This document shows positions 11,025-31,115 of a DNA stretch of 33,178 nt, in pieces (the first letter of the stretch is position 1; each line of letters starts with the position of its first letter). This DNA is from an uncultured Bacteroidales bacterium (GTDB taxonomy: Bacteria > Bacteroidota > Bacteroidia > Bacteroidales > JACABE01). Where the stretch lies: assembly GCA_903899825.1 (NCBI GenBank), contig CAIUKU010000247.1, forward strand, positions 1-33,178, given 5' to 3'. The notes beneath the pieces were generated by a model. It was given only the letters and a program-made list of their open reading frames with translations. It was not told the origin of the DNA and searched no databases. The translations under genes and the position numbers were made by a program.

Positions 11025-11057
11025 TATACAGTAAATAAAAAAAAATATTAACTAATT

Positions 11058-11064: not shown

Positions 11065-11073
11065 AACACAGCT

Positions 11074-11634: not shown

Positions 11635-11670
11635 TTTTTAAATTATCACTAATCTAAATATATCACAGCA

Positions 11671-11865: not shown

Positions 11866-11949
11866 TTAAAAACAATCAGTATTAACCTTGTTTATAGCAC
11901 AAAAGAGTCCTTAAAAAACAGGAACGCTTAAACAATAAAACAAAAAAAA

Positions 11950-12297: not shown

Positions 12298-12315
12298 TCT
12301 TAGTTTAAACCCTAT

Positions 12316-12343
12316 AAGCCAACATAATAAATATGCTGGTTTT
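12316..12343 (+). terminator. Weak putative terminator after rplT
   Basis: AAGCCAACAT, a 7-nt AT loop and ATGCTGGTTT form a 10-bp stem with one mismatch and one G-U pair, ending in four T residues. It may only partly terminate the thrS-infC-rpmI-rplT transcript, since rplS has its own promoter element just downstream. Confidence 0.45.
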
Positions 12344-12390
12344 ACAAAAAAAATATTTTGAGTAATGATGCAAATTGAAAAAAAATATAT

Positions 12391-12398
12391 TAATTTTG
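12391..12398 (+). promoter_or_regulatory. Putative -7 element of the rplS promoter
   Basis: TAATTTTG matches the TAnnTTTG consensus exactly, and the string ATTAATTTTGCA is also present at the thrS promoter (8893-8904). It lies 33 nt before the rplS ATG. A TTG at 12375 is closer than the usual 19-nt spacing, so the -33 element is uncertain. Confidence 0.55.
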
Positions 12399-12431
12399 CA
12401 TCCCCTAAAAAACAATAAAAAAATAGCAATC

Positions 12432-12785
12432 ATGAGCAAGCCCGAATTAATGCAATATGTTGAAAGCCTTGTTGAAAAAAAAGAATTTCCAAAATTTAAA
12501 GCAGGCGACACTATTACAGTTTCATATAAAATCAAAGAAGGTAACAAAGAACGTATCCAGCTTTTCCAGGGAGTTGTACTCCAAAGAAGTGGATCAGGTT
12601 CTACTGAAACTTTTACCGTTAGAAAAATATCAGGAAGTACCGGCGTAGAAAGAATATTTCCTATTGCTTCACCTTTTATCGATAACATCGAAGTAAACAA
12701 ACATGGTGTTGTAAGAAGAGCCCGTATTTTCTATTTAAGAGGCTTAAGAGGTAAAAAAGCCAGAATTAAAGAAAAAAGAATGTAA
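12432..12785 (+). CDS. rplS: 50S ribosomal protein L19
   Basis: This is a 117-residue protein at the 30S-50S interface. The body matches bacterial L19: [89 protein letters not shown]. The ATG at 12432 gives the normal N-terminus ([13 protein letters not shown]). An upstream ATG at 12375 in the same frame would add 19 unconserved residues and start within the promoter region, so it is rejected. A strong terminator follows 18 nt after the stop. Confidence 0.97.
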
Positions 12786-14424: not shown

Positions 14425-16029
14425 TTACTTAATTAACACTTTTTGCGAATAAGTATTTTTACCTGTAATAACTCTGACAATATAATAAGCAGTAGATTTA
14501 TCAGCCATATTAACAACTATATTGCCATTGTTTGCATTTTCAATCGTTTTGATTAATTGACCAATGGTGTTGTAAACAGCAATTTGTAAAATATTTTCAT
14601 TGCTGTTTATATAAATGTTATTGTCATTAGCGTAAATACTGGTATTCTGAATTACATTATCCGAAATTCCAAGAGGTGACAATGCAAATAACAATTGGAA
14701 ACGATTTGGATTATCGCTGGTTGTTGAAGCAAAAGTATATGTTGCAGTTTGTTTCAAATCAATAATAATGTCTTTTGCTAAGTCTTTTAGGTAAACATAG
14801 GTAAGATTTGAAAAACTATTTAATTCGCTTGCGTTGATAGTATAATTTCCATCAATAGCAGCTTTAAACCCAACAGCTATAACAGAATTTGCTGTAATAG
14901 AAGTAAGATAATTGATACTCCATTTCTTATTCAATTTTGATGAGTACAAACTTGGAGCAGTTGCTTCTAAACTAAACATTTTTTCAGCACCTTCTAAGTC
15001 GTTAGTATTACCAAATTTAACAACAATTTCATCGCTATAATTATTGACAGTTCCTTTTACAGCTAAGCGAATTATATCAGACGAAGTAGCTTTAAGATAT
15101 GGTTGAGAAGAATGTACCCTTACACTATCATTCATAATAAGCGTTCCAGTAGTTGCTGCTTTTACCCAAAATCCTTGCCCAATGGCAATATTATTGCTGA
15201 CACCATTGGTGCCAATACCACCACTATTGTTTGAGTTATAAGCACCGTAGTTGCCTTTTAAGGAATTCCAAATCCACATAGCTGTTTTACCGTTGATGGA
15301 TGTGCCATTTGTATCAACTAAGCTGCTTTTTGTCCAACCATTAGTTGCATCCCAATCGATAGCTGATGGATAAGGATTAGCAACAAAGTTCCATCCACTA
15401 TCAGCTATAGCTGTTGTAACAGTAAGAGGAATACTGATAATGCCTTGATTTAGGTTTCCAATAAAGTTTTTGGTTGTTGTACCCGGATATGAAACAGCAT
15501 AACCTTTAGCAGGAATAAAATTAGTACCGCCATTGGCAGCTGCAAAATTGGCAACATCCGCATATTCTATCCAATTTCCATTAGGCTCGTTCCAAACATA
15601 GAAACCATCAGGCTCATTAAAAACAGGACTTATAGCTTGTGTTGCTACAGGTGAAGCCAGCATGTGAAACTCATCGGCTGTACTGTGAGGAATATAACGT
15701 TCAACAGTAGCATTCACAGCAGCAGTTGAATGCAATAATGAAGCTGTTCCTGTGGAATCCGATTTAATAACCAAGCCTGTTGTACCTGCATTATTTGTTA
15801 ATGTTCCGTTTACAGTTAATGCTTTTGCTGCAGCTATTGTTAACACAGCAGCTGAATTTATAGTTAAATCATTACAAACAGCAGCTGATGCAGTATTCAA
15901 ATCTACAATCGGCGAATAGGTAGTGCCTGAAGGAATTACAATATTATCGCTCGATGTGGGTACAGTTCCTGTATTCCAGTTTGCACCTTGCGACCAGGCA
16001 TTGGAAGTATTACCAATCCATGTAAAAAG
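14425..16029 (-). other. C-terminal beta module and T9SS sorting domain of the giant protein
   Basis: Residues about 4170-4703 start with FTWIGNTSNAWSQGANWNTG and SDNIVIPSGTTYSPIV, then the FHMLASPVATQAISP and GWNFVANPYPSAIDWD segments common in large Bacteroidota surface proteins next to the sorting domain. The last about 75 residues are a T9SS type A domain (IAVYNTIGQLIKTI, AYYIVRVITGKNTYSQKVLIK), which directs outer-membrane translocation and surface anchoring or release. Confidence 0.85.
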
Positions 16030-19000
16030 AATAGCACAATTGGTGCTATAACTTGCTCCTGTATCTATTTGTGTCCAGTTGGCTGTTGAATAAGCGGCAT
16101 TATCCACTTGAATACAAGTTAAATTTGGATTATTTGTTGCACTGAAATCAGCCATAATTGTATTATTTCCATTTTTTACATTTAAACTTGTCAATAAATT
16201 ATTCATACAATACAAATACTGTATAGCTGTATTTGTAGAAAAATCTAAATTCGTCAATTGATTACTGTAGCAATCAATTTCATATAGAGAAGTAAGACCA
16301 GAAACATTTAGACTGGTTAACAGATTTGCATTACAGTAAATATAAGTAAGAGAAGTAAGACCAATCCCGGAAAAATTCAAACTTGAAAATTGATTAAAAG
16401 AACAATCAATGTAAGCAAGAGAAGTAAGACTGGTAAGATTAATAGATGTTAATTGGTTATTGTCACAGTTAATGTCAATCAGATTATTAAGACCCAAAAC
16501 ATTTAAACTTGACAACGAATTGTATTGGCAATCCAAATATTGAAGAGCTGTATTTGTTGAAACATTTAAAGTTGAAAGTTGGTTGTTTTGGCAGTATAGT
16601 GATGTAAGTGCAGTTAGTCCTGAAACATTCAAACTTGTTAATGAATTGTCTTTACAATCGAGTGTTTGGAGAGCTGTATTTGATGAAACATTCAAACCCG
16701 CTAATTGATTGAAGGAACAATCAATATAAGTAAGAGATGTTAGTCCGGTAACATTTAAACTTGTTAATGAACTTGAGTTACAATCAATATATTCAAGAGC
16801 TGTATTTGATGAAAGATCTAAGGTAGTTAATGAATTATTGGTACAATATAAACGTTGGAGGGCTGTATTTGATGAAAGATTTAAAGTTGTAAAAGTATTT
16901 CCTCCACAATATAATTCAGTAGCATTTGTAAATGCTTCAATACCGGTCATGTCAGCAACATTTTCACCATCAATGTTAGCATGAATTACACCTGTAAAAG
17001 CAGAAGCTTCTGAACATTGAATTTCGCCATCGTTGTTGGTATCCAATCCACTTATTGCCAATAGTTGTGATTTAAAGTTGGTATCTGGGATGTTTACAAT
17101 ACACACTACTTGAACAGCAATAACAGTTCGCGAAGAACTTGCCCCGCAATTAGTGCTATCCTGCACATAATAAGTAGTATTGGCATTTAATATTGGAGTA
17201 GTATAATTAGCTCCACCTCCCAACCAGACACCACCGGTGGATGTGCTATACCAGCCAAGTGTGCCTGTGCCGCTTGCAGAAAGGACAGTAGAATGTCCAC
17301 TATTAATTGTTTGATTTGCAAGAGGCGTAGTATTTGTTGGTGTATTAGGTATTGTATTTACTATAAATGCTCCCGATATAGCAGTGGTTTGTGTTGTTCC
17401 GCAATCTCCGCTTACTTCACAATAATAATAGAGTGTACCTACTGTTGTTGCTAATGGAGTATAAGAACTGGAATTTGTTCCTGTTGTTGTTCCTCCTGTA
17501 GTAGTTGCTGTGGTATTGCTATACCATTGATACATTAAATTAGTACCTGCTGCTGTTACTGTAATCGGAGTAAATGTTCCGTTTAAGCATTGCGTTTGGC
17601 TTGATGTGGATTGGCTGATTATAGCTGGGCTTACACAAGCACAATTGGTGCTATAGCTGGCTCCTGCATCTATTTGTGTCCAGTTGGCTGTTGAATAAGC
17701 GGCATTATCCACCTGAATACAACTTAAGTTAGGATTATTGGTTGCTTTGAAATCAGACATAATAGTATTATTTCCATTTTTTACATTTAGACTTGTCAAT
17801 AAATTATCATTACAATATAAATATTGAATAGCTGTATTCGAAGAAAAATCTAAATTCGTCAATTGATTGTTGTAGCAATCAATTTCATTGAGAGAAGTAA
17901 GACCAGAAACATTTATACTGGTTAACAGATTTGCGTTACAGTAAATCTCAGTTAGAGAAGTAAGACCAATCCCGGAAAAATTCAAACTTGAAAATTGATT
18001 ATTCGAGCAATCAATGTAAGCAAGAGAAGTAAAACCGTTAAGATTTATAGATGTTAGTTGGTTGTAATAAACGACAATCTTATTAAGTGAAGTTAGTCCA
18101 GTAAGATTTAAAGTTGAAAGTTGGTTATGTCCAACGTTAATCTCAATCAGATTATTCAGACCTGAAACATTCAAACTTGTTAATGAATTGTTGTAACAAT
18201 TGAGTGTTTGGAGAGCTGTATTGGTTGAAACATCTAAAGTTGAAAGTTGGTTGAATTGGCAATCAAGTGATGTAAGAGCAGTAAGCCCTGAAACATTCTG
18301 GCTTGTTAGTAAATTGTCGGCACAATTGAGTGTTTGGAGAGCTGTATTGGTTGAAACATTTAAAGTTGAAAGTTGGTTGTATTGGCAGTTAAGTGATGTA
18401 AGTGCAGTAAGTCCGGAAATATTCAGGCTTGTTAGTAAATTGTCGGCACAATTAACATTCGTAAGTGAAGTAAGACCAATACCGGAAAAATTTAAACTTG
18501 AAAAGTGATTACTATAACAATCAATATATGTAAGAGCAGTAAGCCCGGAAATATTTAAGCTCGTTATTGAACCTTCGTTACAGTCCAAATATTGAAGAGC
18601 TGTATTTGATGAAAGGTCTAATGAAGTAAAAAGATTCCCGCCACAGTATAATTGGGTTAGATTTGTAAATGCTTCAATTCCTGTTATATCAGAAATATAT
18701 TTAACAGCTACATCTATGGTGCCGGTATATGCAGTAGCTTCTGAGCATTGGATTTCGCCATCGCTATTTGTATTGATAGTTGCATCAGCCAACAATGCAG
18801 CTTTAAAGTTTGCATCAGGTATGTTTACAATACATGGCGGTGTGCAGTTAGTACTAAAGCTTGCTCCTGCATCTATTTGTGTCCAGTTGGCAGTTGAATA
18901 TGCTGCATTATCAACCTGTATGCAGCTTAAGCCGGGATTGTTTGTTGCATCAAAGTCCGAGTACGGAAAGTTGGTATTGTTGCCATTTTTCACATTTAAG

Positions 19001-22000
19001 CTTGTTAATAAATTGTCGTTACAATACAATCCTCTAAGCGAAGTATTTGAAGAAAAATCTAAAGTTGTTAGTTGATTGTCATAACAGGTTACATAATATA
19101 AAGAAGTCAGGCCTGTAACATCTAAACTGGTTAATAAATTTTGATCACACTCTAAAACACCAATCGATGCATTAGCTAAAACATTTAAATTTGTCAATTG
19201 ATTGTTGAAACAATATAAATCAACAAGCAGGATAAGACCTGAAACATTTAAACTAGTTAAGGCGTTTGAACTACATTCTAATTTTGTAAGTGCTGTATTG
19301 GATAACAAATTGAGGTTTGCCAGTTGGTTTGCATTACATGCTAATTCATTAAGAGAAGTAAGACCTGAAACATTTAAACTAGTTAAACTATTGTAACCGC
19401 ATTGCAGATTAGTCAGATGTGTATTGGATGAAACATCCAGACTTGTCAGCTGGTTAAAGGTACAATCAATATAAGTAAGGAGCGAATTGGATGAAAGATT
19501 TAAAGCATTCAAACTATTGTTGCTACAAATCAAATTAGTAATATTGGTAAAATATTCAATACCTGATAGATCTGCAATCCCTTTAGCATCTACATTTATT
19601 GTTCCAGTGTAAGCTGTTGCTTCAGAGCATTGGATTTCACCATCGTTATTTGTATTGATAGTTGAATCAGCCAATAATGATGCTTTAAAGTTTGTATCAG
19701 GGATATTTACAATACATACTACTTCTACAGCAATAGCAGTTCTTGTTGCACTTACTCCACAAATAGTACTATCCTGCACATAATAAGTAGTATTGGCAGT
19801 TAATACAGGAGTTGTTAAATTTGCTCCGTCTCCCAACCAGACACCTCCGGTGGATGCGCTATACCAGCCAAGTGTGCCTGTGCCGCTTGCAGAAAGGACA
19901 GTAGAATGTCCACTATTAATTGTTTGATTTGCAAGAGGCGTTGTATTGGATGGAGTATCAGGTATTGTATTTACAATAAATGCTCCCGAAACTGCTGTGG
20001 TTTGTGTTGTTCCGCAATCTCCATTTACTTCACAATAATAATAGAGTGTTCCTTCTGTTGTTGCTAATGGAGTATAAGAATTAGAATTTGTTCCTGTTGT
20101 TGTTCCTCCTGTAGTAGTTGCAGTAGCATTGCTATACCATTGATAAATTAAATTAGTTCCCGTTGCAGTTACAGTAATCGGAGTAAATGTTCCGTTTAAG
20201 CATTGCGTTTGAGTTGCTGTTGACTGACTGCTTATAGCCGGGTTGGTACAAGGGGGTGTGCAATTAGTACTATAACTTGCTCCTGCATCTTTATGTGTCC
20301 AGTTGGCAGTTGACCAAGCTACATTGTCAACCTGAATACATGTTAAATTTGCGTTGCTTGTAGCATTAAAATCATCAAAGTAGGTATTGTTACCATTTTG
20401 CACATTCAAACTTGTCAACAAATTGTGGTCACAATATATGGATTTAAGAGATGCGTTGGCAGAAACATTTAGCGTTGTAATAGAATTAACACCACATGAT
20501 AAATTTTTAAGCTCTGTATTCGATGAAAGATCGAGACTTGTTAATTGATTAAACGAACAGGATAAACCAGTAAGTGATGTGAGGCTGTTAACATTTAAGC
20601 TTGTCAAATTATTACCATAACAACTTAAACCAATAAGTGCTGTATTAGAAGATATATTCAGACTTGTAAGTTGATTATCACCACAGTTTAATTCTGTAAT
20701 ATTCGTGAAAGATGCTATGCCTGTAAGATCAGAAATGCTTTTGCCTGACACATCAATATAACCTGTCCAGGCAGTGGCTTCAGAGCATTCAATATTGCCA
20801 TTGTTATTGGCATCGAGTCCGGATATGGCTAGCAATGCTGCTTTAAAGTTGGTATCCGGAATGTTTACAATGCAAGCCATGCTAAATTCGTAATCAAGAT
20901 ACTGGTATCTGGCACGCGTAGCATCGTTGATTTTAGCACAAACGTAATATTTTGTACCTGATGTTAAACCTGAAACTGTCCATGCTAAAGTAGATTGAAA
21001 AATTGAAGAAGCTGTTGAAGAGAAATTTTGTGTGCCAATAGTTGCTGAATTATTATTATTGTATGGATTACGGTCAATATCGAGATAGAAATTTACTGCA
21101 CTCGCGTTTGTATAACTTCTGTAAGTAAAATTGAATTGCAATGCATCATTGTTGTATATAGTTTGCGTACCTGACGAAAGTTCGACAGCGTTTTTAACAG
21201 CAACTGATGTTATTACATTGGGCCAAACAGCATTTGTCCAGGTTAATGTTGTTCTTGCCCCCGTACCTCCTAAGGTTGAATTGTTATTGTAACCTGCAAT
21301 AATTGCATTTCCGCTGTTAGGAATGTCGGTACTTTTTCTGTTTCCGGCAATATCTCTACTGTAAACAAAGCCTGTATTTTGACCTGCATTTTCATAGGTG
21401 TTAAACCAGGTTCTTTCGGTAGTTGTCATCGTTGCCTGACCATTTGATACAGGGGTTGCCAAATCAATAGTTCCATGGTAAGCAAGAATGATATTCAAAT
21501 GGTCGGAAAAATTGTAATTAGAACCAAGAATATTGTAAGTATAACCTGTCTGGTTGTGATAACCACCGGGTAAACTTGTCCAAAGGCGATTATATGCACC
21601 TGTTAATGATAGTCCGGTAGGATAAGCAATATTTTGATAGTAATTGTCGGCAAATAAGATGTTCTGATAAATTTGAATCGGAGTATCTATAGTTGAACCC
21701 GGTCCTATTGGAACAGCAGCACCTTGCGGATCGGTAGCAGTAAGTGGATGTGGGTCAAGAGAAGTGACTTGCTCCACTTCTATGCCTTGTAGTCCAAGTA
21801 AACGAGCAATTTCATACGCCATTCCACCACCGCGGCTATGACCCATTAAATGAATGGGTAACTCTGATAAAGCAGGTTGAGCGTTTTGACTTTGATAGAT
21901 TTTTGGAGCTATAGCGGCTGCTACTTCTTGTGCTGTAATTCCTGTTGTTAAATGGTTTGAAACTGCAGTCCAGTTTACCAATACTACAATTTCGCCCGAT

Positions 22001-25000
22001 GTAGCAGTAGCCAGATTATAATTCCAATTGCTGCATGTAGCAGTAAGGTTACCTTTTGTGCCGGTAACAGTAATGGTCCCGATTTGTCCTACACCTCCCG
22101 AGCGGGCAATAATAGCATTTGCCATTGGCTGCATCCATGCTGGTTGAGAACCATCAGGATTCCATCCATGTATGATAAGTGTAACTCCGGCACCTTGTTT
22201 GGCTAAAGTCTGTGAAGAACTTGTTATAAATGCTCCCGATACTGCAGTGGTTTGTGTTGTTCCACATGTACCTGTTACTACACAATAATAATAGAGTGTT
22301 CCAACTGTTGTTGCCTGAGGTGTATAGGAGTTTGTGTTTGCTCCATTACCTGTACCTAGTGAAGTTCCGCCTGTATTACTTGCTGTAACATTGCTGTACC
22401 ATTGATATATTAAATTAGTACCTGTAGCAGTTACAGTAATTGGAGTAAATGTTCCATTCAAGCTTTGAGTTTGGGTTGCTGTTGACTGACTGTTTATAGC
22501 TGTTGCTGGATTTACAACTATTGCCCCTGAAATGTTGCTCGTTGGTGTTCCACAACTGCCTGTTACAACACAATAATAATAGAGTGTTCCAACTGTAGTA
22601 GCTTGAGGTGTATAAGAGTTTGTGCTTGCTCCATTAGCTGAACCAAGTGAAGTTCCACCTGTAGTACTTGCACTAGCATTTTTGTACCATTGATAAGTTA
22701 TATTAAGACCTGTTGCTGTTACATTAATTGCATTAAATGTTCCATTTAAGCATTGAGTTGCGGCTGGTGTTGACTGACTGCTTATTTCAGTTACAGGATT
22801 CACGATAAATGCTCCTGATATTGCACTGGTTTGTAATGTTCCACAATCTCCGCTTACTTCACAATAATAATAAAGTGTTCCAACAGTAGTTGCTAATGGG
22901 GTATAGGAATTTGAATTGGTTCCTATTGTTGTTCCACCTGAAGTACTTGCTGTAGCATTGCTATACCATTGATACATTAAATTAGTACCTGTTGCAGTTA
23001 AAGTAATTGGAGTAAATGTTCCATTTACGCATTGTGTTTGGGTTGCTGTTGACTGGCTGCTTATAGCAGGATTGATACAAGAACAATCAGTACTATAACT
23101 TGCTCCCGCATCTTTACCTGTCCAGTTGGTTGTTGACCAAGCGGCATTGTCCACCTGAATACAGATTAATCCTGGATTGTTTGTCGCAGAAAAATAAGCA
23201 CCTGAAATGTTGGTGTTGTGTCCATTTTTAACATTCAAACCCGTTAATGAATTATAACCGCAATCCAATCTGGTAATGCCTGTATTGGATGAAAAATCCA
23301 GATTCGTCAGTTGGTTCACACCACAATTAATCATAGAGAGTGTAGTAAGCCCGCTTACATTTATACTTGACAAAAGATTATTGTTGCAATACAAACCAAT
23401 AAGTGCCGAATTGGATGAAACATCCAAACTTGTGAGTTGATTGTATCTACAAACCAAATAATTTAAAGAAGTGTTGCCGCTTACATTTAAACTTGTTAAT
23501 GAATTATTCGCACATGAAAAGTTTATTAGAGCCGTATTGCTTGTTATGTTTAAAGCTGTAAGTTGATTATTGCTGCAATCCAAATCAGTTAGCAAGCTTA
23601 GCGCCGAAATATTTAAGCTTGTGAGGTTGTTATTGGAACAAAACAATTTAGTAATATGAGTAAAAGCTTCTATACCTGTCATATCGGCAATTGCTTTAGC
23701 ATTTACATCTATGTCGCCGGTAAAAGCAGTAGCTTCGGTACATTGAATTTTGCCATCGCTATTGGCATCAAGTCCGGGTATTGCTAATAGTGCAGTCTTA
23801 AAGTTTGTATCAGGAATATTTACCTGACATTGTTCTCTTACAATGATATACTGTCCTAAATACTTAACGCTGTTGGGGTCATTTTCTGACGGATTCACTA
23901 TATTATTCAGTCCATTAAATGTAACCTGATGATTAGTTGCACTCACCGATGAGGCAGAAGCCAGGTATGTCCAGTTATCATCTGTAGCGTTAGTTCGTGT
24001 GTATAGATCAATCTTACCGGGCTGAAGTTCATCTGAAGCAGTTAAATCTTCATTTATCGTGAAAGTCAGGTTTGCTGTATAATCACCCAGTCCATATTTA
24101 TGAACTGTCCAATATTGCCTGTCAAAAACGGTATCAACGTTTGCAGGGTTAACATTTGGAAAACTGTCTATTCTTGTAACAACAATGATATCACTGCCGC
24201 TTTTGGTAGTGAAGTTTATTGCAAGACTGGTATTGGTAAAAGTTGTTGTTCCGGAAGTGCTTACTACTTGTGTATTGCTGTATCCGCTACCAAACGGAAT
24301 GGTAGATTTTATATATTGATTGAAAGCAGAAGCAAACCAGGTTCCATTGTTTACGCCTTTTTTATCGTAAACAGTTGGGGGTTGCCCTTCGTCGAACTGC
24401 CAGTACGAAACCAGTCCTGTTTCGCTTCCCGTTAGCGGCAAGTGCATGTTCTCCCGTACCTGGGAATAGCTCATCGCCGTATTCCATAAGCGGACTTCTT
24501 CAATATATCCTCTGAAACAATTGCTGCTCCCGCCATTATCATAATTTGAAAGATACAAAGGCTGGGTGTTTGCGGTTACACTTGTAGGGGTTCCCGTAAG
24601 TGCAACTTCTTCTCCATTCAGGTACAAATGCCTTGTTCCGTTGTTGTTTACGGCAGCTACATGGCACCATTGATTTTGCGTGAGTATATTATCAGCCGTT
24701 GCCATGCCATCGAAAATCAGTCCGCGATGGTTTCCGCTTCCGTTCGACAGCAGGGTGTAGCCGTTGGCATTATATCCTTTTGATACGATAATCCGGTTGG
24801 TGCTTACTGCCACACCGGGTTTTATCCACACTTCAATAGTGTAATTATTGGTTAACTGAAGCGAGCTGTTGTTGGGTACGCTGATATAGTTTGCCTGGTC
24901 ACCATTGTTGATGCAGGTTGAGGCTTGGGTTACATTGGTGGTTGTAAAACTAACCTGTTCGCCGTAAACGGTGTCGCGTTCGTTGATTGCAAAAGCACGC

Positions 25001-28000
25001 ACATAATAGGTTGTGCCGTGGTGCAGCCCACTCATGTTTGCCGTAAATGCTCCAAAATTAGATGTAGCACCAAGGTTTACTTTGCTATCGGCTGTTGTTG
25101 GTGTACCGGTGGTATTATAGCAAACACCGTAAGAGGTGATATTAAATGTTCCCCTTCTTTCAATAGTGCCATTTGCCGTGGCCGTAAAGGTTTTGATATT
25201 GGTAACCGCCTGCGTGCTTAGTTCGGGTGTGTAATAAAAACAAGGATAACCATTGTTTGCATTGGCAGAAATATACCACCTGTTGGTGAAATCCCAGCCG
25301 GTGTAAGTTGATTGGGTCTTCATTTGTGCCGTGGTTCTTCCATGTACATGGGTTGTATCGGTGTATTTTCCTCCTGTTGTTTGCCCTGAAGTTTCCATAT
25401 CCCAATACGATGAATCTATTGTACCAGATTGAGTATTAAAATAACCAACAAAACCTCCTCCCGAATTACTTATTAAATAATTGTCTGTTATAACTAAACC
25501 TGTGGAATAGCATTGCGTAATGTGACCTGATTGCAATCCGGCAAAGCCGCCTAAATTCTGGTAATAACTTGGTCCGCTACTTACTTTTGCTGATGAATAG
25601 CAATACTTAATTAAGACATTAGAACCATTAGTATAATTGTAATTATTAACCTCACCAACAAGCCCTCCATATCTAGAATTATTATTACTTAAACCAGTCA
25701 CGCTTCCACTACTACTGCAATAACTTATTGTCGTTGTCGTATTGCTTTCTGCCTCTGCCACACCAACAAGGCCTCCAACATATCCTCTGCTAAGTATTGA
25801 TACATTGGTTACGCTAAGGCTATCAATAGTTGCGTTTATTATGTAACCGAAAAAGCCCTGAACTGAAGGCCTAGTCGTACCATCAATATAAATACTGTCA
25901 ACAGTATGGCCTTTGCCCTTGTATGTGCCACTGAATTTATAATACGTACCATTAGAGGTTTGATAACCAATAGGACTAAAACCGGTTCCACCATTCCAGT
26001 TTCTGCATGGGGCGGCATTAATATCAGCCGTTTGTATGAAGTTACTGGTCCAAGAAGCCTTATTTTCCGGTGCTTGTAGCCAGCATAAATTATCAAGGGA
26101 GGCTATCCTGTAAGGGTCGGCAAGGGTTCCGCTTCCCGCAGGTGCAGCCACAGCAGTTGATATAAAAGCCCCTGATACTGCACTGGTTTGAGATGTTGCG
26201 CAACCGCTTACCACGCAATAATAATACAAGGTTCCTGCTGCTTTGCCTGGTGGTGTATAACTGGATGTTTGCGCTCCATCGTCTGAGCCAAGCGAAGTCC
26301 CCCCGCTATTGCTCGCAGCGGTATTGCTGTACCATTGGTACGTTACATTAGTGCCTGTTGCTGTTACCGTAATTGGATAAAATGAACAGTTTTCGGGTTG
26401 TGTTTGCGTAGCGGTGGATTGGCTGGTGATGGTGGGAGGAGTACAAGAAGTAGTAACTGTTGTATAAGTATAATAATTGGCACCTGTACCTGTAAGGCTC
26501 GTTTTATCGGCTCTTACACGGTAATAATAAGTAATGCCGCTTGTTAATCCTGTTACAGCTTTTGATAAATTGTTGCCACAATCTACATTATTATAACCTG
26601 AAACCATAGCAGTAAAAGTAGTATTGGTTGATACATCTAATTTGTAGCTTGTAACTGTTCCAATAGCAGGTGCTGTCCAGTTGGCGGTAAAGCCTGTAAA
26701 AGTGATGCTTGTAGCTGCTGCGGGTGCAGGCACTACCATAGCATAACTTTCGACCCAGCAGGTGGCTGCGTCCATATTTGTGAGGGTTCCGTTGCTGGAT
26801 GCTACTACATCAGTAAGTGTTGTGCCCGAGCCATTATTAAATTGCCAGTAATTAACCAGTCCGGTTTCAGTGCCTGTTAGCGTATTACACATATCGCTCC
26901 GTATTTGTGCTTCGGTTCTTGCCACATTAAATAGTCGCACTTCATCAATCTTACCATCGAAAACCCTTGTGGGGAATCCAGGGCTGTTTCCAATAAACAG
27001 AGATAAAGCTGATACGCTTATAGCGCCTGAATAAGATTGTTGCCCTGCGAGTACGCCATTTACATAAATAGACAGGCTTGCTCCATCATAAACACCTGCC
27101 ACATAATTCCATCGTCCGGTTGACATTACAGCACCGGAAAGGACTTCATGCCATCCACCCGCTGAACCTATAACAAAGCTTAACATGCCATTGTTGCCAC
27201 AACGAAGGTCGAATCCTGAAGAGCTTGTATTATCTTTACCTACTATAGTTCCTCCCCAGGAATTGGCATTCCATGTATCGGCATTTATCCATGCCTCTAT
27301 AGTAATAGCCCCGGTGATATTGAGGCTGGAGGCATTTCCACAATCTACATAATCATTTGTTCCGTCGAAATTAAGGGTTGTACCAACCGTATTAGGAGGA
27401 GAGCTGAAACAAACCATATATTGCCCGTCGAAACTTGTTATTCCATTAAATGTAGCTGTATTATTTACAGCATCTGCACTGGCAGCCGTTGCAACAAGCG
27501 ACCATGTTCCATCTCCATTACCGCTCCTTTTATAAAGCTGTATAAGCGAGGGGTGTGCTGCTTGTCCGCTTGTAATATCCTCGTTAACTGTGAAAGTAGC
27601 GTTTGTAGTAAAAGTGCCAGTTCCAAATCGGTTTATTACCCAATATTGCGAATTGAAAGCGGTAGTAACCCCGGTAGGGCTTACATTTGCTAAGGTATCA
27701 ATGCGGCTTGCTACGATGGTGTCGGTACCGCTTTTGGCAGTAAAATTCATAACTAAACCAGTTCCGGTTAAGGTTTTTGTTCCGTTAGCGTTTACAATCT
27801 GGGTGTTTACAGCCCCTGCTGCAAAAGGGATGGTGGAAGCAACCCAGGTGGGAGTATTCTGTAGTGTGCCGGTGGCTGTTCCTTTCATATCGCTTAATGT
27901 GGTGCCGCTTCCATTGTTAAACTGCCAGTAATTTTTAAGATTTGCATTGGCAATGGGTGCGGTGCGGTACATATCTTCGCGTATATCGGTAATAGTACGA

Positions 28001-28536
28001 GCAGAATTCCATACACTCACTTCATCCATCTTTCCGTTGAATGCTTCTGAACCGGTGGCGCTAAATGAAAAACTTCCCGAAGGTGGGTATAATCCACCGG
28101 CAGGGGATGCACTCTTTAATAGATTGCCGTTCAGATAGAGTTTCATAGTAGTTCCGTCGTAAGTGCCCGCAACATGCATCCAGGTTCCGGTGGTCAGCAC
28201 ATTTTCAGCCTGCAAAGCATAAAGTGATCCATTTGTTTTTTTAATATAGAAATGTAGTTTGTTTACACCCCCACTTCCGTCGTAGCGCAATACTGCCACT
28301 TCTGGGTTAATGGTTACATATCGCTGAACGACACTCGCAGGCAGGGTATTGTGATACACCCATGCTTCGATGGTGATTGCCGTAAGGCTGGTACTTATTC
28401 CCGTTGCACCGGAAACAGCCTGATTTACGCCATTAAAGCTGAGTGCTTTTTGAGGCGACTGCGTTTGTGCCTGCAATTGAATGCCAATGGCAAAAACCAT
28501 AAGCAACAGAATACTTTTAAGTAATTTTGATTTCAT
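14425..28536 (-). CDS. 4703-residue multidomain surface protein (LamG, Ig, GLUG-like, lipase-like, LRR, T9SS)
   Basis: This giant exported protein fills over 40% of the window. A signal peptide occupies residues 1-24 (KSILLLMVFAIGIQLQA-Q). In order follow LamG 1 (about 25-240), a beta domain (about 245-385), LamG 2 (about 386-600), a fibronectin-III-like domain (about 610-700), an Ig-like domain (about 700-795), a GLUG-like region (about 795-1105), another FnIII-like domain and LamG 3 (about 1200-1400). Then come LRR block 1 (about 1567-1815), three Ig-like domains (to about 2112), a lipase-like domain (about 2113-2552), LRR block 2, two Ig-like domains, LRR blocks 3 and 4, two more Ig-like domains, LRR block 5 (to about 4172), and a C-terminal module ending in a T9SS type A sorting domain (QKVLIK). 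The frame is intact throughout. It starts 40 nt after a receiver-like gene, so the two are probably cotranscribed. A role in binding glycans or surfaces is likely; the substrate is unknown. Confidence 0.95.
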   Translation of the reverse strand: MKSKLLKSILLLMVFAIGIQLQAQTQSPQKALSFNGVNQAVSGATGISTSLTAITIEAWVYHNTLPASVVQRYVTINPEVAVLRYDGSGGVNKLHFYIKKTNGSLYALQAENVLTTGTWMHVAGTYDGTTMKLYLNGNLLKSASPAGGLYPPSGSFSFSATGSEAFNGKMDEVSVWNSARTITDIREDMYRTAPIANANLKNYWQFNNGSGTTLSDMKGTATGTLQNTPTWVASTIPFAAGAVNTQIVNANGTKTLTGTGLVMNFTAKSGTDTIVASRIDTLANVSPTGVTTAFNSQYWVINRFGTGTFTTNATFTVNEDITSGQAAHPSLIQLYKRSGNGDGTWSLVATAASADAVNNTATFNGITSFDGQYMVCFSSPPNTVGTTLNFDGTNDYVDCGNASSLNITGAITIEAWINADTWNANSWGGTIVGKDNTSSSGFDLRCGNNGMLSFVIGSAGGWHEVLSGAVMSTGRWNYVAGVYDGASLSIYVNGVLAGQQSYSGAISVSALSLFIGNSPGFPTRVFDGKIDEVRLFNVARTEAQIRSDMCNTLTGTETGLVNYWQFNNGSGTTLTDVVASSNGTLTNMDAATCWVESYAMVVPAPAAATSITFTGFTANWTAPAIGTVTSYKLDVSTNTTFTAMVSGYNNVDCGNNLSKAVTGLTSGITYYYRVRADKTSLTGTGANYYTYTTVTTSCTPPTITSQSTATQTQPENCSFYPITVTATGTNVTYQWYSNTAASNSGGTSLGSDDGAQTSSYTPPGKAAGTLYYYCVVSGCATSQTSAVSGAFISTAVAAPAGSGTLADPYRIASLDNLCWLQAPENKASWTSNFIQTADINAAPCRNWNGGTGFSPIGYQTSNGTYYKFSGTYKGKGHTVDSIYIDGTTRPSVQGFFGYIINATIDSLSVTNVSILSRGYVGGLVGVAEAESNTTTTISYCSSSGSVTGLSNNNSRYGGLVGEVNNYNYTNGSNVLIKYCYSSAKVSSGPSYYQNLGGFAGLQSGHITQCYSTGLVITDNYLISNSGGGFVGYFNTQSGTIDSSYWDMETSGQTTGGKYTDTTHVHGRTTAQMKTQSTYTGWDFTNRWYISANANNGYPCFYYTPELSTQAVTNIKTFTATANGTIERRGTFNITSYGVCYNTTGTPTTADSKVNLGATSNFGAFTANMSGLHHGTTYYVRAFAINERDTVYGEQVSFTTTNVTQASTCINNGDQANYISVPNNSSLQLTNNYTIEVWIKPGVAVSTNRIIVSKGYNANGYTLLSNGSGNHRGLIFDGMATADNILTQNQWCHVAAVNNNGTRHLYLNGEEVALTGTPTSVTANTQPLYLSNYDNGGSSNCFRGYIEEVRLWNTAMSYSQVRENMHLPLTGSETGLVSYWQFDEGQPPTVYDKKGVNNGTWFASAFNQYIKSTIPFGSGYSNTQVVSTSGTTTFTNTSLAINFTTKSGSDIIVVTRIDSFPNVNPANVDTVFDRQYWTVHKYGLGDYTANLTFTINEDLTASDELQPGKIDLYTRTNATDDNWTYLASASSVSATNHQVTFNGLNNIVNPSENDPNSVKYLGQYIIVREQCQVNIPDTNFKTALLAIPGLDANSDGKIQCTEATAFTGDIDVNAKAIADMTGIEAFTHITKLFCSNNNLTSLNISALSLLTDLDCSNNQLTALNITSNTALINFSCANNSLTSLNVSGNTSLNYLVCRYNQLTSLDVSSNSALIGLYCNNNLLSSINVSGLTTLSMINCGVNQLTNLDFSSNTGITRLDCGYNSLTGLNVKNGHNTNISGAYFSATNNPGLICIQVDNAAWSTTNWTGKDAGASYSTDCSCINPAISSQSTATQTQCVNGTFTPITLTATGTNLMYQWYSNATASTSGGTTIGTNSNSYTPLATTVGTLYYYCEVSGDCGTLQTSAISGAFIVNPVTEISSQSTPAATQCLNGTFNAINVTATGLNITYQWYKNASASTTGGTSLGSANGASTNSYTPQATTVGTLYYYCVVTGSCGTPTSNISGAIVVNPATAINSQSTATQTQSLNGTFTPITVTATGTNLIYQWYSNVTASNTGGTSLGTGNGANTNSYTPQATTVGTLYYYCVVTGTCGTTQTTAVSGAFITSSSQTLAKQGAGVTLIIHGWNPDGSQPAWMQPMANAIIARSGGVGQIGTITVTGTKGNLTATCSNWNYNLATATSGEIVVLVNWTAVSNHLTTGITAQEVAAAIAPKIYQSQNAQPALSELPIHLMGHSRGGGMAYEIARLLGLQGIEVEQVTSLDPHPLTATDPQGAAVPIGPGSTIDTPIQIYQNILFADNYYQNIAYPTGLSLTGAYNRLWTSLPGGYHNQTGYTYNILGSNYNFSDHLNIILAYHGTIDLATPVSNGQATMTTTERTWFNTYENAGQNTGFVYSRDIAGNRKSTDIPNSGNAIIAGYNNNSTLGGTGARTTLTWTNAVWPNVITSVAVKNAVELSSGTQTIYNNDALQFNFTYRSYTNASAVNFYLDIDRNPYNNNNSATIGTQNFSSTASSIFQSTLAWTVSGLTSGTKYYVCAKINDATRARYQYLDYEFSMACIVNIPDTNFKAALLAISGLDANNNGNIECSEATAWTGYIDVSGKSISDLTGIASFTNITELNCGDNQLTSLNISSNTALIGLSCYGNNLTSLNVNSLTSLTGLSCSFNQLTSLDLSSNTELKNLSCGVNSITTLNVSANASLKSIYCDHNLLTSLNVQNGNNTYFDDFNATSNANLTCIQVDNVAWSTANWTHKDAGASYSTNCTPPCTNPAISSQSTATQTQCLNGTFTPITVTATGTNLIYQWYSNATATTTGGTTTGTNSNSYTPLATTEGTLYYYCEVNGDCGTTQTTAVSGAFIVNTIPDTPSNTTPLANQTINSGHSTVLSASGTGTLGWYSASTGGVWLGDGANLTTPVLTANTTYYVQDSTICGVSATRTAIAVEVVCIVNIPDTNFKASLLADSTINTNNDGEIQCSEATAYTGTINVDAKGIADLSGIEYFTNITNLICSNNSLNALNLSSNSLLTYIDCTFNQLTSLDVSSNTHLTNLQCGYNSLTSLNVSGLTSLNELACNANQLANLNLLSNTALTKLECSSNALTSLNVSGLILLVDLYCFNNQLTNLNVLANASIGVLECDQNLLTSLDVTGLTSLYYVTCYDNQLTTLDFSSNTSLRGLYCNDNLLTSLNVKNGNNTNFPYSDFDATNNPGLSCIQVDNAAYSTANWTQIDAGASFSTNCTPPCIVNIPDANFKAALLADATINTNSDGEIQCSEATAYTGTIDVAVKYISDITGIEAFTNLTQLYCGGNLFTSLDLSSNTALQYLDCNEGSITSLNISGLTALTYIDCYSNHFSSLNFSGIGLTSLTNVNCADNLLTSLNISGLTALTSLNCQYNQLSTLNVSTNTALQTLNCADNLLTSQNVSGLTALTSLDCQFNQLSTLDVSTNTALQTLNCYNNSLTSLNVSGLNNLIEINVGHNQLSTLNLTGLTSLNKIVVYYNQLTSINLNGFTSLAYIDCSNNQFSSLNFSGIGLTSLTEIYCNANLLTSINVSGLTSLNEIDCYNNQLTNLDFSSNTAIQYLYCNDNLLTSLNVKNGNNTIMSDFKATNNPNLSCIQVDNAAYSTANWTQIDAGASYSTNCACVSPAIISQSTSSQTQCLNGTFTPITVTAAGTNLMYQWYSNTTATTTGGTTTGTNSSSYTPLATTVGTLYYYCEVSGDCGTTQTTAISGAFIVNTIPNTPTNTTPLANQTINSGHSTVLSASGTGTLGWYSTSTGGVWLGGGANYTTPILNANTTYYVQDSTNCGASSSRTVIAVQVVCIVNIPDTNFKSQLLAISGLDTNNDGEIQCSEASAFTGVIHANIDGENVADMTGIEAFTNATELYCGGNTFTTLNLSSNTALQRLYCTNNSLTTLDLSSNTALEYIDCNSSSLTSLNVTGLTSLTYIDCSFNQLAGLNVSSNTALQTLDCKDNSLTSLNVSGLTALTSLYCQNNQLSTLNVSTNTALQYLDCQYNSLSSLNVLGLNNLIDINCDNNQLTSINLTSLTSLAYIDCSFNQFSSLNFSGIGLTSLTYIYCNANLLTSLNVSGLTSLYEIDCYSNQLTNLDFSTNTAIQYLYCMNNLLTSLNVKNGNNTIMADFSATNNPNLTCIQVDNAAYSTANWTQIDTGASYSTNCAILFTWIGNTSNAWSQGANWNTGTVPTSSDNIVIPSGTTYSPIVDLNTASAAVCNDLTINSAAVLTIAAAKALTVNGTLTNNAGTTGLVIKSDSTGTASLLHSTAAVNATVERYIPHSTADEFHMLASPVATQAISPVFNEPDGFYVWNEPNGNWIEYADVANFAAANGGTNFIPAKGYAVSYPGTTTKNFIGNLNQGIISIPLTVTTAIADSGWNFVANPYPSAIDWDATNGWTKSSLVDTNGTSINGKTAMWIWNSLKGNYGAYNSNNSGGIGTNGVSNNIAIGQGFWVKAATTGTLIMNDSVRVHSSQPYLKATSSDIIRLAVKGTVNNYSDEIVVKFGNTNDLEGAEKMFSLEATAPSLYSSKLNKKWSINYLTSITANSVIAVGFKAAIDGNYTINASELNSFSNLTYVYLKDLAKDIIIDLKQTATYTFASTTSDNPNRFQLLFALSPLGISDNVIQNTSIYANDNNIYINSNENILQIAVYNTIGQLIKTIENANNGNIVVNMADKSTAYYIVRVITGKNTYSQKVLIK
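16030..17104 (-). repeat. LRR block 5 of the giant protein
   Basis: The cap VNIPDTNFKSQLLAISGLDT precedes the EF-hand-like loop DTNNDGEIQCSE (17008-17043) and about fourteen LRR units. Its 3' third is nearly the same as the end of block 4 at DNA level (compare 16036-16200 with 17641-17810). It leads into the C-terminal module. Confidence 0.85.
17105..17635 (-). repeat. Ig-like domain pair, copy 2 of an intragenic duplication
   Basis: Partner of 19717-20249. The exact 84-nt match is 17245-17328. The near identity at DNA level, including third codon positions, points to recent unequal recombination or gene conversion within the gene. Confidence 0.85.
17636..18832 (-). repeat. LRR block 4 of the giant protein
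   Basis: The longest block: cap VNIPDANFKAALLADATINT, EF-hand-like loop NTNSDGEIQCSE (18739-18774) and about sixteen LRR units, several nearly identical to each other (LNVSTNTALQTLNCADN repeated). It includes longer variants, LNFSGIGLTSLTEIYCNANL, that recur in block 5. Confidence 0.85.
18833..19716 (-). repeat. LRR block 3 of the giant protein
   Basis: The cap VNIPDTNFKASLLADSTINT is followed by the EF-hand-like loop NTNNDGEIQCSE (19621-19656) and about eleven LRR units alternating 'LTSLNVSGLTSLNELACNAN' and 'SSNT' types. It closes with LSCIQVDNAAYSTANWTQID and runs directly into block 4 with no Ig-like spacer. Confidence 0.85.
19717..20249 (-). repeat. Ig-like domain pair, copy 1 of an intragenic duplication
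   Basis: Encodes an SQSTATQTQCLNGTFTPITV-type Ig-like domain plus a second one (NTTPLANQTINSGHSTVLSA). It shares an exact 84-nt run (19858-19941) with the pair at 17105-17635, offset by 2613 nt, an in-frame 871 codons. The rest is also highly similar. Confidence 0.85.
20250..20879 (-). repeat. LRR block 2 of the giant protein
   Basis: The shortest block, with about six units. It has the same cap (VNIPDTNFKAALLAISG), an EF-hand-like loop DANNNGNIECSE (20779-20814; position 5 is Asn rather than Asp), LRR units such as LTSLNISSNTALIGLSCYGN, and the closing LTCIQVDNVAWSTANWTHKD. Confidence 0.84.
20880..22200 (-). other. Lipase-like alpha/beta-hydrolase domain inside the giant protein
   Basis: Residues about 2113-2552. 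LIIHGWNPDG resembles the oxyanion strand of lipases, and IHLMGHSRGGGMAYEIARLL is a G-x-S-x-G nucleophile elbow with S2234. TSLDPHPL supplies D2261, and FSDHLNI supplies H2346 as the likely catalytic histidine. Spacing and the LDP context resemble pancreatic-type lipases. It is flanked by Ig-like domains on one side and LRR block 2 on the other. Activity and substrate are inferred only. Confidence 0.75.
23090..23836 (-). repeat. LRR block 1 of the giant protein
   Basis: Begins with a cap VNIPDTNFKTALLAIPG and an EF-hand-like loop (DANSDGKIQCTE, 23734-23769). About eight LRR units of roughly 21 residues follow, of the type LTSLNVSGNTSLNYLVCRYNQ. The block ends with the closing segment LICIQVDNAAWSTTNWTGKD that terminates every LRR block in this protein. 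Confidence 0.85.
24330..24930 (-). other. LamG/concanavalin A-like domain 3 of the giant protein
   Basis: Residues about 1203-1402: NYISVPNNSSLQLTNNYTIE, VWIKPG, WCHVAAVNNNGTRHLYLNGE, FRGYIEEVRLWNTAMSYSQVR, SYWQFDEGQPPTVYDKKG. It is followed by a copy of the beta domain seen after LamG 1 (AINFTTKSGSDIIVVTRIDS versus MNFTAKSGTDTIVASRIDT), so a LamG plus beta-domain cassette was duplicated. Confidence 0.87.
25220..26150 (-). other. GLUG-like beta-helix region of the giant protein
   Basis: Residues about 796-1105 open with GSGTLADPYRIASLDNLCWL and contain repeated turns VQGFFGYI, VGGLVGVAEA, YGGLVGEVN, LGGFAGLQSG and GGGFVGYFN, each followed by polar strands with Cys-Tyr-Ser. This is the pattern of GLUG-type repeats in adhesins and IgA-peptidase-like proteins. 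It ends with an SYWDMETSGQTTGG segment typical of such regions. Confidence 0.8.
26755..27385 (-). other. LamG/concanavalin A-like domain 2 of the giant protein
   Basis: Residues about 385-594: TLNFDGTNDYVDCGN, ITIEAWINADTW, WNYVAGVYDGASLSIYVNG, FDGKIDEVRLFNVARTEAQIR, NYWQFNNGSGTTLTD. It is clearly homologous to domain 1, from which it is separated by a beta domain that recurs after LamG 3. Confidence 0.88.
27820..28465 (-). other. LamG/concanavalin A-like domain 1 of the giant protein
   Basis: Residues about 25-240: ALSFNGVNQAVSG, ITIEAWVYH, WMHVAGTYDGTTMKLYLNG, FNGKMDEVSVWNSARTITDIR and NYWQFNNGSGTTLSD. These are the standard strands of the LamG/pentraxin-like lectin fold that binds carbohydrate or other ligands in secreted Bacteroidota proteins. 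Confidence 0.88.
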
Positions 28537-28576: not shown

Positions 28577-28927
28577 TTAATCTATTTCTTGTTTTCTTAT
28601 TTTATTCTCAAATTCTTTTTTACTTGCATTTTTATGGATTACATCCACTGTTGTGTTATAATTCGGAGGGATTTCCTCTGTATAATTTATCATAAATAAA
28701 AACCTTACCGACGGCCAAAGTCTGAGGGCTTCGGTAATGATATTGACACACTTTTCTTTGCTAATCGAAAAATCAATTAATATCAGTTGAATCTGATAGT
28801 TACCTGGATTTTCCAGCTTATAAAAGTTATCTGAATCAAAAACAACTTCGATATCTTGTATCTGATTTAGTACAGTTTTCAAACTTTCGCGAAATGTTTT
28901 ATTTTGTTCGATAATTACAATATTCAT
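28577..28927 (-). CDS. Stand-alone degenerate receiver-domain protein
   Basis: These 116 residues form a single CheY-like receiver with no output domain. Its first 31 residues are about 55% identical to the response regulator at 30477-31115 (FRES-K-VL-QI---EVVFD versus FREG-K-VL-QI---EVVFD). The phosphoacceptor D52 (LILIDFS) and the conserved K99 (VIHKNASK) remain. The usual acidic pair is E7-Q8 instead of Asp-Asp, and the switch Thr/Ser position is I80. Phosphorylation may therefore be weak or absent. The gene lies 40 nt upstream of the giant surface-protein gene and 89 nt downstream of a small ORF, in one direction, so an operon is likely. It could compete with the regulator for the kinase or dimerise with it; this is inference. 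The start ATG is the only one fitting the first beta strand. Confidence 0.85.
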   Translation of the reverse strand: MNIVIIEQNKTFRESLKTVLNQIQDIEVVFDSDNFYKLENPGNYQIQLILIDFSISKEKCVNIITEALRLWPSVRFLFMINYTEEIPPNYNTTVDVIHKNASKKEFENKIRKQEID

Positions 28928-30476: not shown

Positions 30477-31115
30477 TTATTCTACTGAAAAGTAGTTGTT
30501 TTTAATAGCCCACACAATTAACTCGCAAATATTCCTTACATCCGTTTTGTGAAAAATATTACTACGGTGAACTTCAACTGTTTTTACACTTATAAATAGT
30601 TTGTCTGAAATCTCCTGGGTTGTAAGTCCTTTACATACCAGATGAAGAACATCCAATTCGCGATGCGTAAATTGATTGAGAGCAGATGCAAAATTAACCG
30701 ACTGAAAAGCCAGTTTTTGCATGATTTCCTGACTGAAATAATTACCACCCGAATACACTGCATTAATTGCTTGCTGAAGTTCAAACTTATTTGATTTTTT
30801 AAGAATAAATCCTTTTATACCGGCATCAATCATTTGTGTATAATGGGTAGTATCTGAAAACATAGTAAGTGCAATAACCTTAAGGTCTGCATTCAATTGC
30901 AGGGCTTTTTGTGTGGTTTCAACCCCATCGATAACGGGCATATTGATATCCATTAATACCACATCGGGAAGCGAATTTTGCAGAAAATCCAGGAATAAAA
31001 ATCCACTGGAAGTATCAAAAACAACTTCAAAATTTTCAATTTGCCCTAATACGAGTTTAATGCCTTCCCTAAAAAGGTCGTGGTCATCAATTATAGCGAT
31101 CTTAATTTGTTTCAT
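30477..31115 (-). CDS. LuxR/NarL-family response regulator
   Basis: This 212-residue two-component regulator has an N-terminal receiver with acidic pair D10-D11 (IAIIDDHDLFREG), phosphoacceptor D56 (DVVLMDINMP), switch T84 (VIALTMFSD) and K106 (GFILKK), all intact. The C-terminal LuxR helix-turn-helix spans about residues 147-207 (FTHRELDVLHLVCKGLTTQE, then ISDKLFISVKTVEVHRSNI). It therefore binds DNA, usually as a dimer on palindromes, after phosphorylation. I prefer the ATG at 31115, which leaves three residues before the first strand; an ATG at 31124 would add three residues. Either way it overlaps the end of the sensor kinase gene, so the pair is translationally coupled. The operator-like repeats at 29314-29378 are the closest visible candidate targets. 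Confidence 0.94.
   Translation of the reverse strand: MKQIKIAIIDDHDLFREGIKLVLGQIENFEVVFDTSSGFLFLDFLQNSLPDVVLMDINMPVIDGVETTQKALQLNADLKVIALTMFSDTTHYTQMIDAGIKGFILKKSNKFELQQAINAVYSGGNYFSQEIMQKLAFQSVNFASALNQFTHRELDVLHLVCKGLTTQEISDKLFISVKTVEVHRSNIFHKTDVRNICELIVWAIKNNYFSVE

What the first reader, a model, noticed from the sequence alone, without database searches (positions are those of the whole stretch)
20880..22200. Serine-hydrolase (lipase-like) domain buried inside a giant adhesin-like protein
The domain has LIIHGWNPDG, GHSRGG with S2234, LDPHP with D2261 and SDHLNI with H2346, in the order and context of pancreatic-type lipases. It is embedded between Ig-like domains and an LRR block, far from either end. 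An enzyme displayed on an LRR/lectin scaffold at the surface would be an unusual architecture.
Basis: partly seen in the sequence, partly recalled or inferred. Interest (0 to 1): 0.55.

Follow-up and report, generated by a model that had tools for sequence, protein, structure and literature searches.

The report
Lipase-like enzyme inside surface giant
A Bacteroidales bacterium carries a serine-hydrolase domain, probably an active esterase or lipase, in the middle of a 4703-residue exported surface protein; relatives encode the same enzyme as a separate secreted protein next door, so it appears to have been moved into the giant by gene fusion.

Summary
In detail: window 20880-22200 (minus strand) encodes residues 2113-2552 of an uninterrupted 4703-aa ORF, with all four motifs at the stated residues. 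A profile built only from 21 distant relatives (Bacteroidota, Cyanobacteriota, one alphaproteobacterium) finds exactly this stretch (78 bits; 200 shuffles at most 2.8). S2234, the oxyanion HG and H2346 are conserved; the eight Ser-less rows form one clade, and HG is altered in all six of them with letters there. So it is very probably a serine hydrolase. Two corrections. The catalytic acid is open: D2297 is invariant (28/28), while D2261 is Asn in two rows, one with its Ser intact. And the architecture is less unique than thought: in this family the domain often sits inside giant proteins (up to 12,737 aa). In its own close subfamily it is usually a free T9SS-secreted enzyme; in the nearest orthologous locus two free copies flank a shorter giant that lacks it. 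The window copy keeps a likely signal-peptide remnant at its left edge, and its right-hand join to leucine-rich repeats recurs in an independent assembly. Best reading: a T9SS-displayed esterase/lipase captured by gene fusion. Lipid substrate and triad geometry are not shown.

The parts
14425..28536 (-). Giant T9SS cargo protein, 4703 aa
   Evidence: open frame; 61% identical over residues 1-1098 to a 2379-aa giant in L001
28468..28536 (-). N-terminal signal peptide (about residues 1-23)
   Evidence: read from the sequence; no predictor run
26902..27366 (-). Laminin_G_3/ConA-like lectin domain, best of three stretches (residues 391-545)
   Evidence: PF13385, 242.7 bits for three stretches
22225..23058 (-). 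Three Ig_7 (CHU_C-associated Ig-like) units before the hydrolase (residues 1827-2104)
   Evidence: PF19081 104 bits over 8 stretches in the protein; unit positions by motif
22210..22224 (-). TSSSQ (2105-2109): likely remnant of the signal-peptide end of a formerly free enzyme; the other copies read FSQ at this place, shortly before K(Q/P)GAGV
   Evidence: junction alignment with five copies that start with a signal peptide
21301..22200 (-). Serine-hydrolase (lipase-like) domain, residues 2113-2412
22168..22170 (-). H2123 of the oxyanion-type HG motif
   Evidence: H in 18 of 18 Ser-bearing rows with letters, R or P in 6 of 6 Ser-less rows with letters
21835..21837 (-). S2234, candidate nucleophile (GHSRGG)
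   Evidence: S in 20 of 28 rows, G in 8
21754..21756 (-). D2261, first candidate for the catalytic acid (after the strand that follows the nucleophile helix)
   Evidence: D in 26 of 28 rows, N in 2; predicted strand 144-148 of the model ends just before it
21646..21648 (-). D2297 (ILFADNYYQ), second candidate for the catalytic acid
   Evidence: 28 of 28 rows
21499..21501 (-). H2346, candidate catalytic His
   Evidence: 28 of 28 rows
20881..21225 (-). Beta-sandwich after the hydrolase, travels with it (residues 2438-2552)
   Evidence: model residues 330-440 at pLDDT about 80; present in the free copies
20272..20877 (-). Leucine-rich-repeat block that begins right behind the hydrolase module (residues 2554-2755)
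   Evidence: same join in L030
16030..19710 (-). Further LRR and Ig_7 units (residues 2943-4169)
14428..14634 (-). T9SS type A sorting domain (residues 4635-4703)
   Evidence: TIGR04183 26.5 bits, cut-off 23; 34.9 bits in the genome search
28577..28927 (-). Response-regulator-like 116-aa gene directly upstream of the giant
   Evidence: 36% identical to the gene at the same place in the L001 contig
30477..31124 (-). LuxR-type response regulator, conserved neighbour
31102..33033 (-). HisKA_3 histidine kinase with TPR part, conserved neighbour

Best explanation
The stretch is a once free, T9SS-secreted serine hydrolase (alpha/beta-hydrolase core plus its own C-terminal beta-sandwich) that has become an internal module of a giant T9SS cargo protein by fusion with neighbouring genes. 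The giant is exported through the inner membrane by its signal peptide and through the outer membrane by T9SS using its C-terminal sorting tail; LamG lectin-like and LRR/Ig units bind a surface or glycan target and hold the enzyme against it; S2234, activated by H2346 and an Asp (D2297 or D2261), cleaves acyl esters (lipid or acylated glycan) there. Shown by sequence: motifs, conservation, domain order, sorting tail, SprA in the genome, free relatives next to a hydrolase-free giant, the same hydrolase-LRR join in a second genome. Inferred: fold geometry, activity, ester substrate, surface location, binding role of the scaffold, direction of the fusion.
For: Motifs and conservation. Ser and oxyanion HG altered together in one cyanobacterial clade of 8 rows (100/99 support; one event). 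Purifying selection: dN 0.17, dS 1.43 between the window copy and L001b, similar to pairs of free copies; hydrolase core 81% identical to L030 against 37% for the sandwich and 58% for the LRR block. Free forms with signal-peptide-like start and Por-type tail: L001 (two copies), L002, L003 (sorting domain scored for L002 only, 52.9 bits). In L001 the order is HK - RR - RR-like - hydrolase - 2379-aa giant without hydrolase - hydrolase; in the window HK - RR - RR-like - giant with hydrolase, and no other match in the genome. Right junction repeated in L030: colinear, 60% over window residues 2170-2760. T9SS: sorting tail, SprA 2671 bits. Foldseek on the core lists mostly alpha/beta-hydrolases among its top 50, none at E <= 0.001.
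Against: No confident structure; VIA-align's best rows for the core are not alpha/beta-hydrolases (MARTX cysteine protease domain Z 8.0, rmsd 3.8, 128 aligned; phosphoribosyltransferases 6-7; first thioesterase 9f7b Z 6.0, rmsd 5.1, 141 aligned). The Asp and His columns stay conserved in the Ser-less clade, so conservation there need not mean catalysis. PF00151 cut-off not reached. The close-subfamily tree does not resolve which free copy is nearest. L030's contig ends inside the hydrolase, so what precedes it there is unknown. The TSSSQ remnant is only a few residues long.
Confidence: 0.6

Rival explanations
1. The domain keeps the hydrolase fold but serves in the giant as a binding or structural module (pseudoenzyme), like the Ser-less cyanobacterial relatives.
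For: 8 of 28 relatives lost the Ser yet keep Asp and His, and those with an annotated gene lie in large proteins; the window copy is surrounded by binding modules.
Against: The window copy keeps Ser, HG, both Asp and His, and its core is the most conserved part of the fusion; dN/dS about 0.12.
Confidence: 0.15
2. The giant is a competition protein: the hydrolase is a membrane-attacking or processing module of a contact-delivered toxin-like protein.
For: In cyanobacteria the domain is followed by an Endonuclease_NS domain in 8 of 10 proteins examined (two of them with only part of the hydrolase) and by an ART-PolyVal domain in another; alpha/beta-hydrolase toxins exist in polymorphic toxin systems (PMC3482391, passages).
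Against: No toxin-type domain in the giant by Pfam; it ends in a T9SS tail, not a variable toxin tip; the free copies are plain secreted enzymes. In long cyanobacterial proteins the nuclease is itself internal.
Confidence: 0.12
3. The internal placement is an assembly artefact: reads of a giant and of a hydrolase gene were joined.
For: The genome is in 526 contigs and the flanking Ig_7 and LRR units are repeated.
Against: The hydrolase-LRR join recurs in another genus; the left join keeps frame and lies past the repeated Ig_7 unit; no stop or frameshift over 14 kb.
Confidence: 0.05

Closest known systems
Pancreatic-type lipases, PF00151
   Same: HG[WF], GxSxG, LDP after it, then a later His, in this order; best profile hit in the PDB is pancreatic lipase-related protein 2
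   Different: below the Pfam cut-off (23.4 v 27); the match covers only the first half; a second invariant Asp (D2297) may be the acid
T9SS-secreted esterases of Bacteroidetes (PET27-PET30; PMC8767016, passages read)
   Same: serine hydrolase with signal peptide and C-terminal Por sorting domain, like the free relatives here
   Different: those are small PETase/cutinase-type enzymes; here the hydrolase is internal to a 4703-aa protein and matched no cutinase-type Pfam family
Multi-modular T9SS CAZymes (Ca. Paraporphyromonas polyenzymogenes, PMC5831590, passages read)
   Same: large T9SS cargo that carries catalytic domains together with other modules
   Different: those carry glycoside hydrolases; no lipase-like enzyme seen in the passages
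P. gingivalis InlJ (PMC5915736, passages read)
   Same: T9SS-exported LRR adhesin; LRR part of the giant matches the internalin J model (475 bits, cut-off 1700)
   Different: no enzyme domain described in the passages; the model's cut-off is not reached
Tox-ABhydrolase-1/2/3 of polymorphic toxins (PMC3482391, passages read)
   Same: alpha/beta-hydrolase domains in large multi-domain secreted proteins
   Different: described as toxin domains of polymorphic toxins; here internal with a sorting tail. Not compared by profile

Membership tests
PF00151 lipase | Pfam gathering score | tested here: not met
   23.4 bits against 27 for the isolated domain
PF00151 lipase | GxSxG nucleophile with conserved His downstream | tested here: met
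   S2234 and H2346, conserved in 20 of 28 and 28 of 28 rows
PF00151 lipase | catalytic Asp after strand beta6 (pancreatic position; position recalled) | tested here: inconclusive
   D2261 lies there but is N in 2 of 28 rows; D2297 is invariant
alpha/beta-hydrolase fold | fold with Ser, Asp and His together | tested here: inconclusive
   AlphaFold2 models at pLDDT 54 and 47; Foldseek mostly alpha/beta-hydrolases, no E <= 0.001; VIA-align top rows are other folds
PF00975 thioesterase | Pfam gathering score | tested here: inconclusive
   28.4 v 26.4 on the isolated domain, 24.5 on the whole protein; only profile positions 42-105 of 226 matched
T9SS type A cargo | C-terminal sorting domain TIGR04183 over cut-off | tested here: met
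   26.5 v 23
T9SS type A cargo | T9SS machinery in the genome | tested here: met
   SprA TIGR04189 2671 bits, cut-off 200; other components not searched
T9SS type A cargo | cleavage of the tail and surface anchoring | not testable with these tools
   needs the organism
class 1 internalin InlJ | NCBIfam NF033187 cut-off | tested here: not met
   475 v 1700 bits; LRR_4 itself well over its cut-off
polymorphic toxin | C-terminal toxin domain | tested here: not met
   no such Pfam match in the giant; it ends in a sorting tail

The most novel reading that the evidence does not exclude
This is one face of an undescribed alpha/beta-hydrolase family whose members in Bacteroidota, Cyanobacteriota and Alphaproteobacteria repeatedly live inside giant secreted proteins, and which still carries both alternative positions of the catalytic carboxylate: D2261 (pancreatic-lipase position) and D2297 (usual position, invariant). 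D2297 is the working acid, a natural Ser-bearing member already has Asn at the other position, and the family is a living intermediate for the positional switch proposed for pancreatic lipases.
Probability: 0.3. Interest if true: 0.6.

Novelty: new variant of a known kind. Interest (0 to 1): 0.45.

Why it matters
It shows, with the before, intermediate and after forms in related genomes, how a free secreted enzyme can become part of a surface giant. It also points to an unnamed hydrolase family in which both candidate acid positions, Ser-less members and a D-to-N member occur naturally, so an old question on where the catalytic acid of lipases sits becomes testable with a few constructs.

Tried and rejected
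Rejected: assembly artefact as the main reading (join repeated in L030). Rejected: filing as PF00151 or PF00975 (scores). No support for carriage by phage (viral-contig scan with A1: 31 pattern matches, no relative; this is one scan). PADLOC gave nothing. PF00151 searched in the window's genome gave no match, but nothing rang in its controls either, so that call shows nothing.

Led nowhere: two AlphaFold2 jobs stayed at pLDDT 54 and 47; they held only six close sequences. Foldseek/VIA on the 440-aa model was filled by the beta-sandwich; VIA on the core gave other folds on top. A second distant-row alignment put the cyanobacterial L004 row out of register and was not folded. The close-subfamily tree is unresolved. 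A search of G229 for the missing upstream part of L030 gave only Ig_7-type matches.

Rows dropped before counts: L024 (weak hit, kept in the 18-row table, removed); L069/G525, a real relative (E 1.2e-51) that my script took in a wrong frame (printed there as row 29), so it is not in the 28-row counts; L025, G304, G479, G666 and H18 weak or short, not used; G786 a relative not used. Of the 14 plasmid records I fetched matched stretches of 13 (three of those records already); H18 was not fetched.

Literature: searches listed no description of a lipase-like domain inside a T9SS LRR giant; most subscription papers are not held. Schrag, Winkler and Cygler 1992 was seen only as a title in the reference list of PMC10913051; its content is recalled. 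PMC5445135: passages.
Full report
WHAT IS THERE. The window (contig 247 of a 526-contig, 4.2 Mb genome) carries one 14-kb open frame on the minus strand, 14425-28536, 4703 aa. The protein has a signal-peptide-like start, three Laminin_G_3 stretches, Ig_7 units, many LRRs, and a T9SS type A sorting domain at the end. The genome has SprA and 150 matches to the sorting domain among the 150 of 228 candidates that were scored.

IS IT A REAL HYDROLASE DOMAIN. On its own the stretch scores against Thioesterase (28.4 bits, cut-off 26.4), Lipase (23.4, cut-off 27) and Abhydrolase_6 (14.8, cut-off 26.3). A 13-row profile finds pancreatic lipase-related protein 2 best in the PDB (E 0.0091) with GHSxG and LDP aligned; a 4-row profile of the distant free forms gives it only E 0.16, second to an unrelated chain. 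Relatives were sought in the GTDB contigs (4 loci), in drawn sets of whole genomes (3 of 98; 7 of 393 in the order; 7 of 395 in the phylum; each with the window's own genome counted; 8 of 393, and 6 of 375, each with its centre genome counted; the sets overlap and some hits are weak), and in plasmids (4 and 14 records). A profile from 21 distant rows only finds residues 2117-2395 of the giant at 78.4 bits with filters off; with default filters it reports nothing on the full protein; shuffles reach 2.8.

WHICH RESIDUES MATTER. In 28 aligned rows: S2234 is S in 20 and G in 8; H2346 is H in 28; D2297 is D in 28; D2261 is D in 26 and N in 2; H2354, a nearby alternative, varies. The eight Ser-less rows are one clade with full support (100/99), so this is one loss; in the six of them with letters the HG of the oxyanion-type motif is RG or PG, while all 18 Ser-bearing rows with letters have HG. 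That joint loss suggests that Ser and HG work together in the others, the window included. Against a simple story, the Asp and His columns stay fixed in the Ser-less clade (D2261 in 7 of 8), so they may also be structural. D2261 sits where pancreatic lipases have their acid, D2297 where most alpha/beta-hydrolases have it (recalled knowledge; the predicted strand before D2297 is of low confidence). One Ser-bearing member, the 1194-aa protein of L003, has N at D2261.

STRUCTURE. AlphaFold2 with six close sequences gave pLDDT 54 (440 aa) and 47 (300 aa). The first 150 residues show strand, helix, strands, helices, strand-Ser-helix, strand-Asp order, as expected; the second half, with H2346, is unreliable. 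Foldseek ranks alpha/beta-hydrolases in most of its top 50 without reaching E 0.001; VIA-align's best rows are other folds.

HOW IT CAME TO BE INSIDE. In L001 (uncultured Bacteroidales) the same neighbourhood reads histidine kinase, response regulator, response-regulator-like gene, free hydrolase (562 aa), a 2379-aa giant without hydrolase, free hydrolase (593 aa). The window reads histidine kinase, response regulator, response-regulator-like gene, giant with hydrolase, and its genome has no other copy (94% complete). The two giants align at 61% over residues 1-1098 and about 50% over 703-1821. L002 and L003 also have kinase and regulator genes on the same strand before free hydrolases; so all four loci of the close subfamily whose upstream side is held share this pair. 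At the left edge the window has ITSSSQTLAKQGAGV where free copies have their signal-peptide end and mature start, such as LTSFSQVFTKQGAGV. At the right edge the sandwich runs into an LRR block; L030, from another family of the order, has the same order and stays colinear with the window for residues 2170-2760 at 60%, then ends in a FPNP-type tail (read from the sequence), and another gene on that contig encodes an 879-aa LamG and LRR protein. In L003 the second copy is fused differently, with LamG-like and HYR-like parts behind it (read from the sequence). The simplest reading is repeated fusion among neighbouring T9SS cargo genes; the tree does not resolve which free copy was the donor. Three other genomes of the same genus have no copy and no close counterpart of the giant's N-terminal part (best 33% or less), so the locus is accessory.

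IS THE ARCHITECTURE UNIQUE. No. In 12 annotated plasmid genes the domain lies in proteins of 1,220 to 12,737 aa (Calothrix 10,327 and 10,429 and 11,597; Aulosira 10,491; Anabaena 11,150; Pseudosulfitobacter 12,737; Gloeothece 4,762 and 7,711; Stanieria 4,246; Oscillatoria 2,875, 2,467 and 1,220; lengths worked out from the coordinates). In 8 of 10 proteins examined from the domain to the gene's end (two of them, Oscillatoria RS33690 and RS35020, with only part of the domain) an Endonuclease_NS domain follows it, in one an ART-PolyVal domain, in Pseudosulfitobacter neither. So internal placement is a habit of the family; the T9SS/LRR/LamG setting and the visible fusion history are what is special here.

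MECHANISM. Most likely a surface-held esterase or lipase, exported by T9SS, held against a bound surface by lectin-like and LRR modules. Sequence supports each module; surface location, target and substrate are inference. Precedents for T9SS-exported esterases, multi-modular enzymes and LRR adhesins are in PMC8767016, PMC5831590 and PMC5915736 (passages read).

VERDICT. Observation confirmed; interpretation partly supported; a new variant of a known kind. Interest 0.45, mainly for the captured-enzyme history and for the two-acid question.

Noticed in passing
L035, L037, L076-L080, L004: A single cyanobacterial clade of eight relatives has lost the nucleophile Ser (GxGQG) and, where readable, the oxyanion HG, yet keeps Asp and His: a pseudoenzyme branch.
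   Followed up: yes
L003:5133-8717: A Ser-bearing 1194-aa member has LNPHP instead of LDPHP: a natural D-to-N variant at the first candidate acid.
   Followed up: partly
L094, L095, L088: In Oscillatoria plasmids, genes with this domain or part of it plus Endonuclease_NS are each followed by a pentapeptide-repeat gene on the opposite strand (RS33355, RS33690, RS35020, OSCIL6304_RS36170; not so for RS33680), which looks like a nuclease and protector pairing.
   Followed up: partly
window 28577-28927, 30477-31124, 31102-33033; L001/L046, L002, L003: A kinase and LuxR-type regulator pair lies upstream on the same strand in all four close loci whose upstream side is held; the regulator is 60-73% identical. 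A candidate dedicated control of the enzyme.
   Followed up: partly
window 159-5531 and 5688-7607: Two more T9SS cargo proteins; the first (1790 aa) carries five similar repeats of about 87 residues before its tail.
   Followed up: no
window 9090-12785: Housekeeping run that looks like thrS, infC, rplT and rplS (named from the sequences, not searched) next to the giant, so the contig looks chromosomal.
   Followed up: no
window 24001-28000: G+C rises to 0.42-0.45 in the 5' part of the giant gene against 0.32-0.36 in most of the rest of the window.
   Followed up: no
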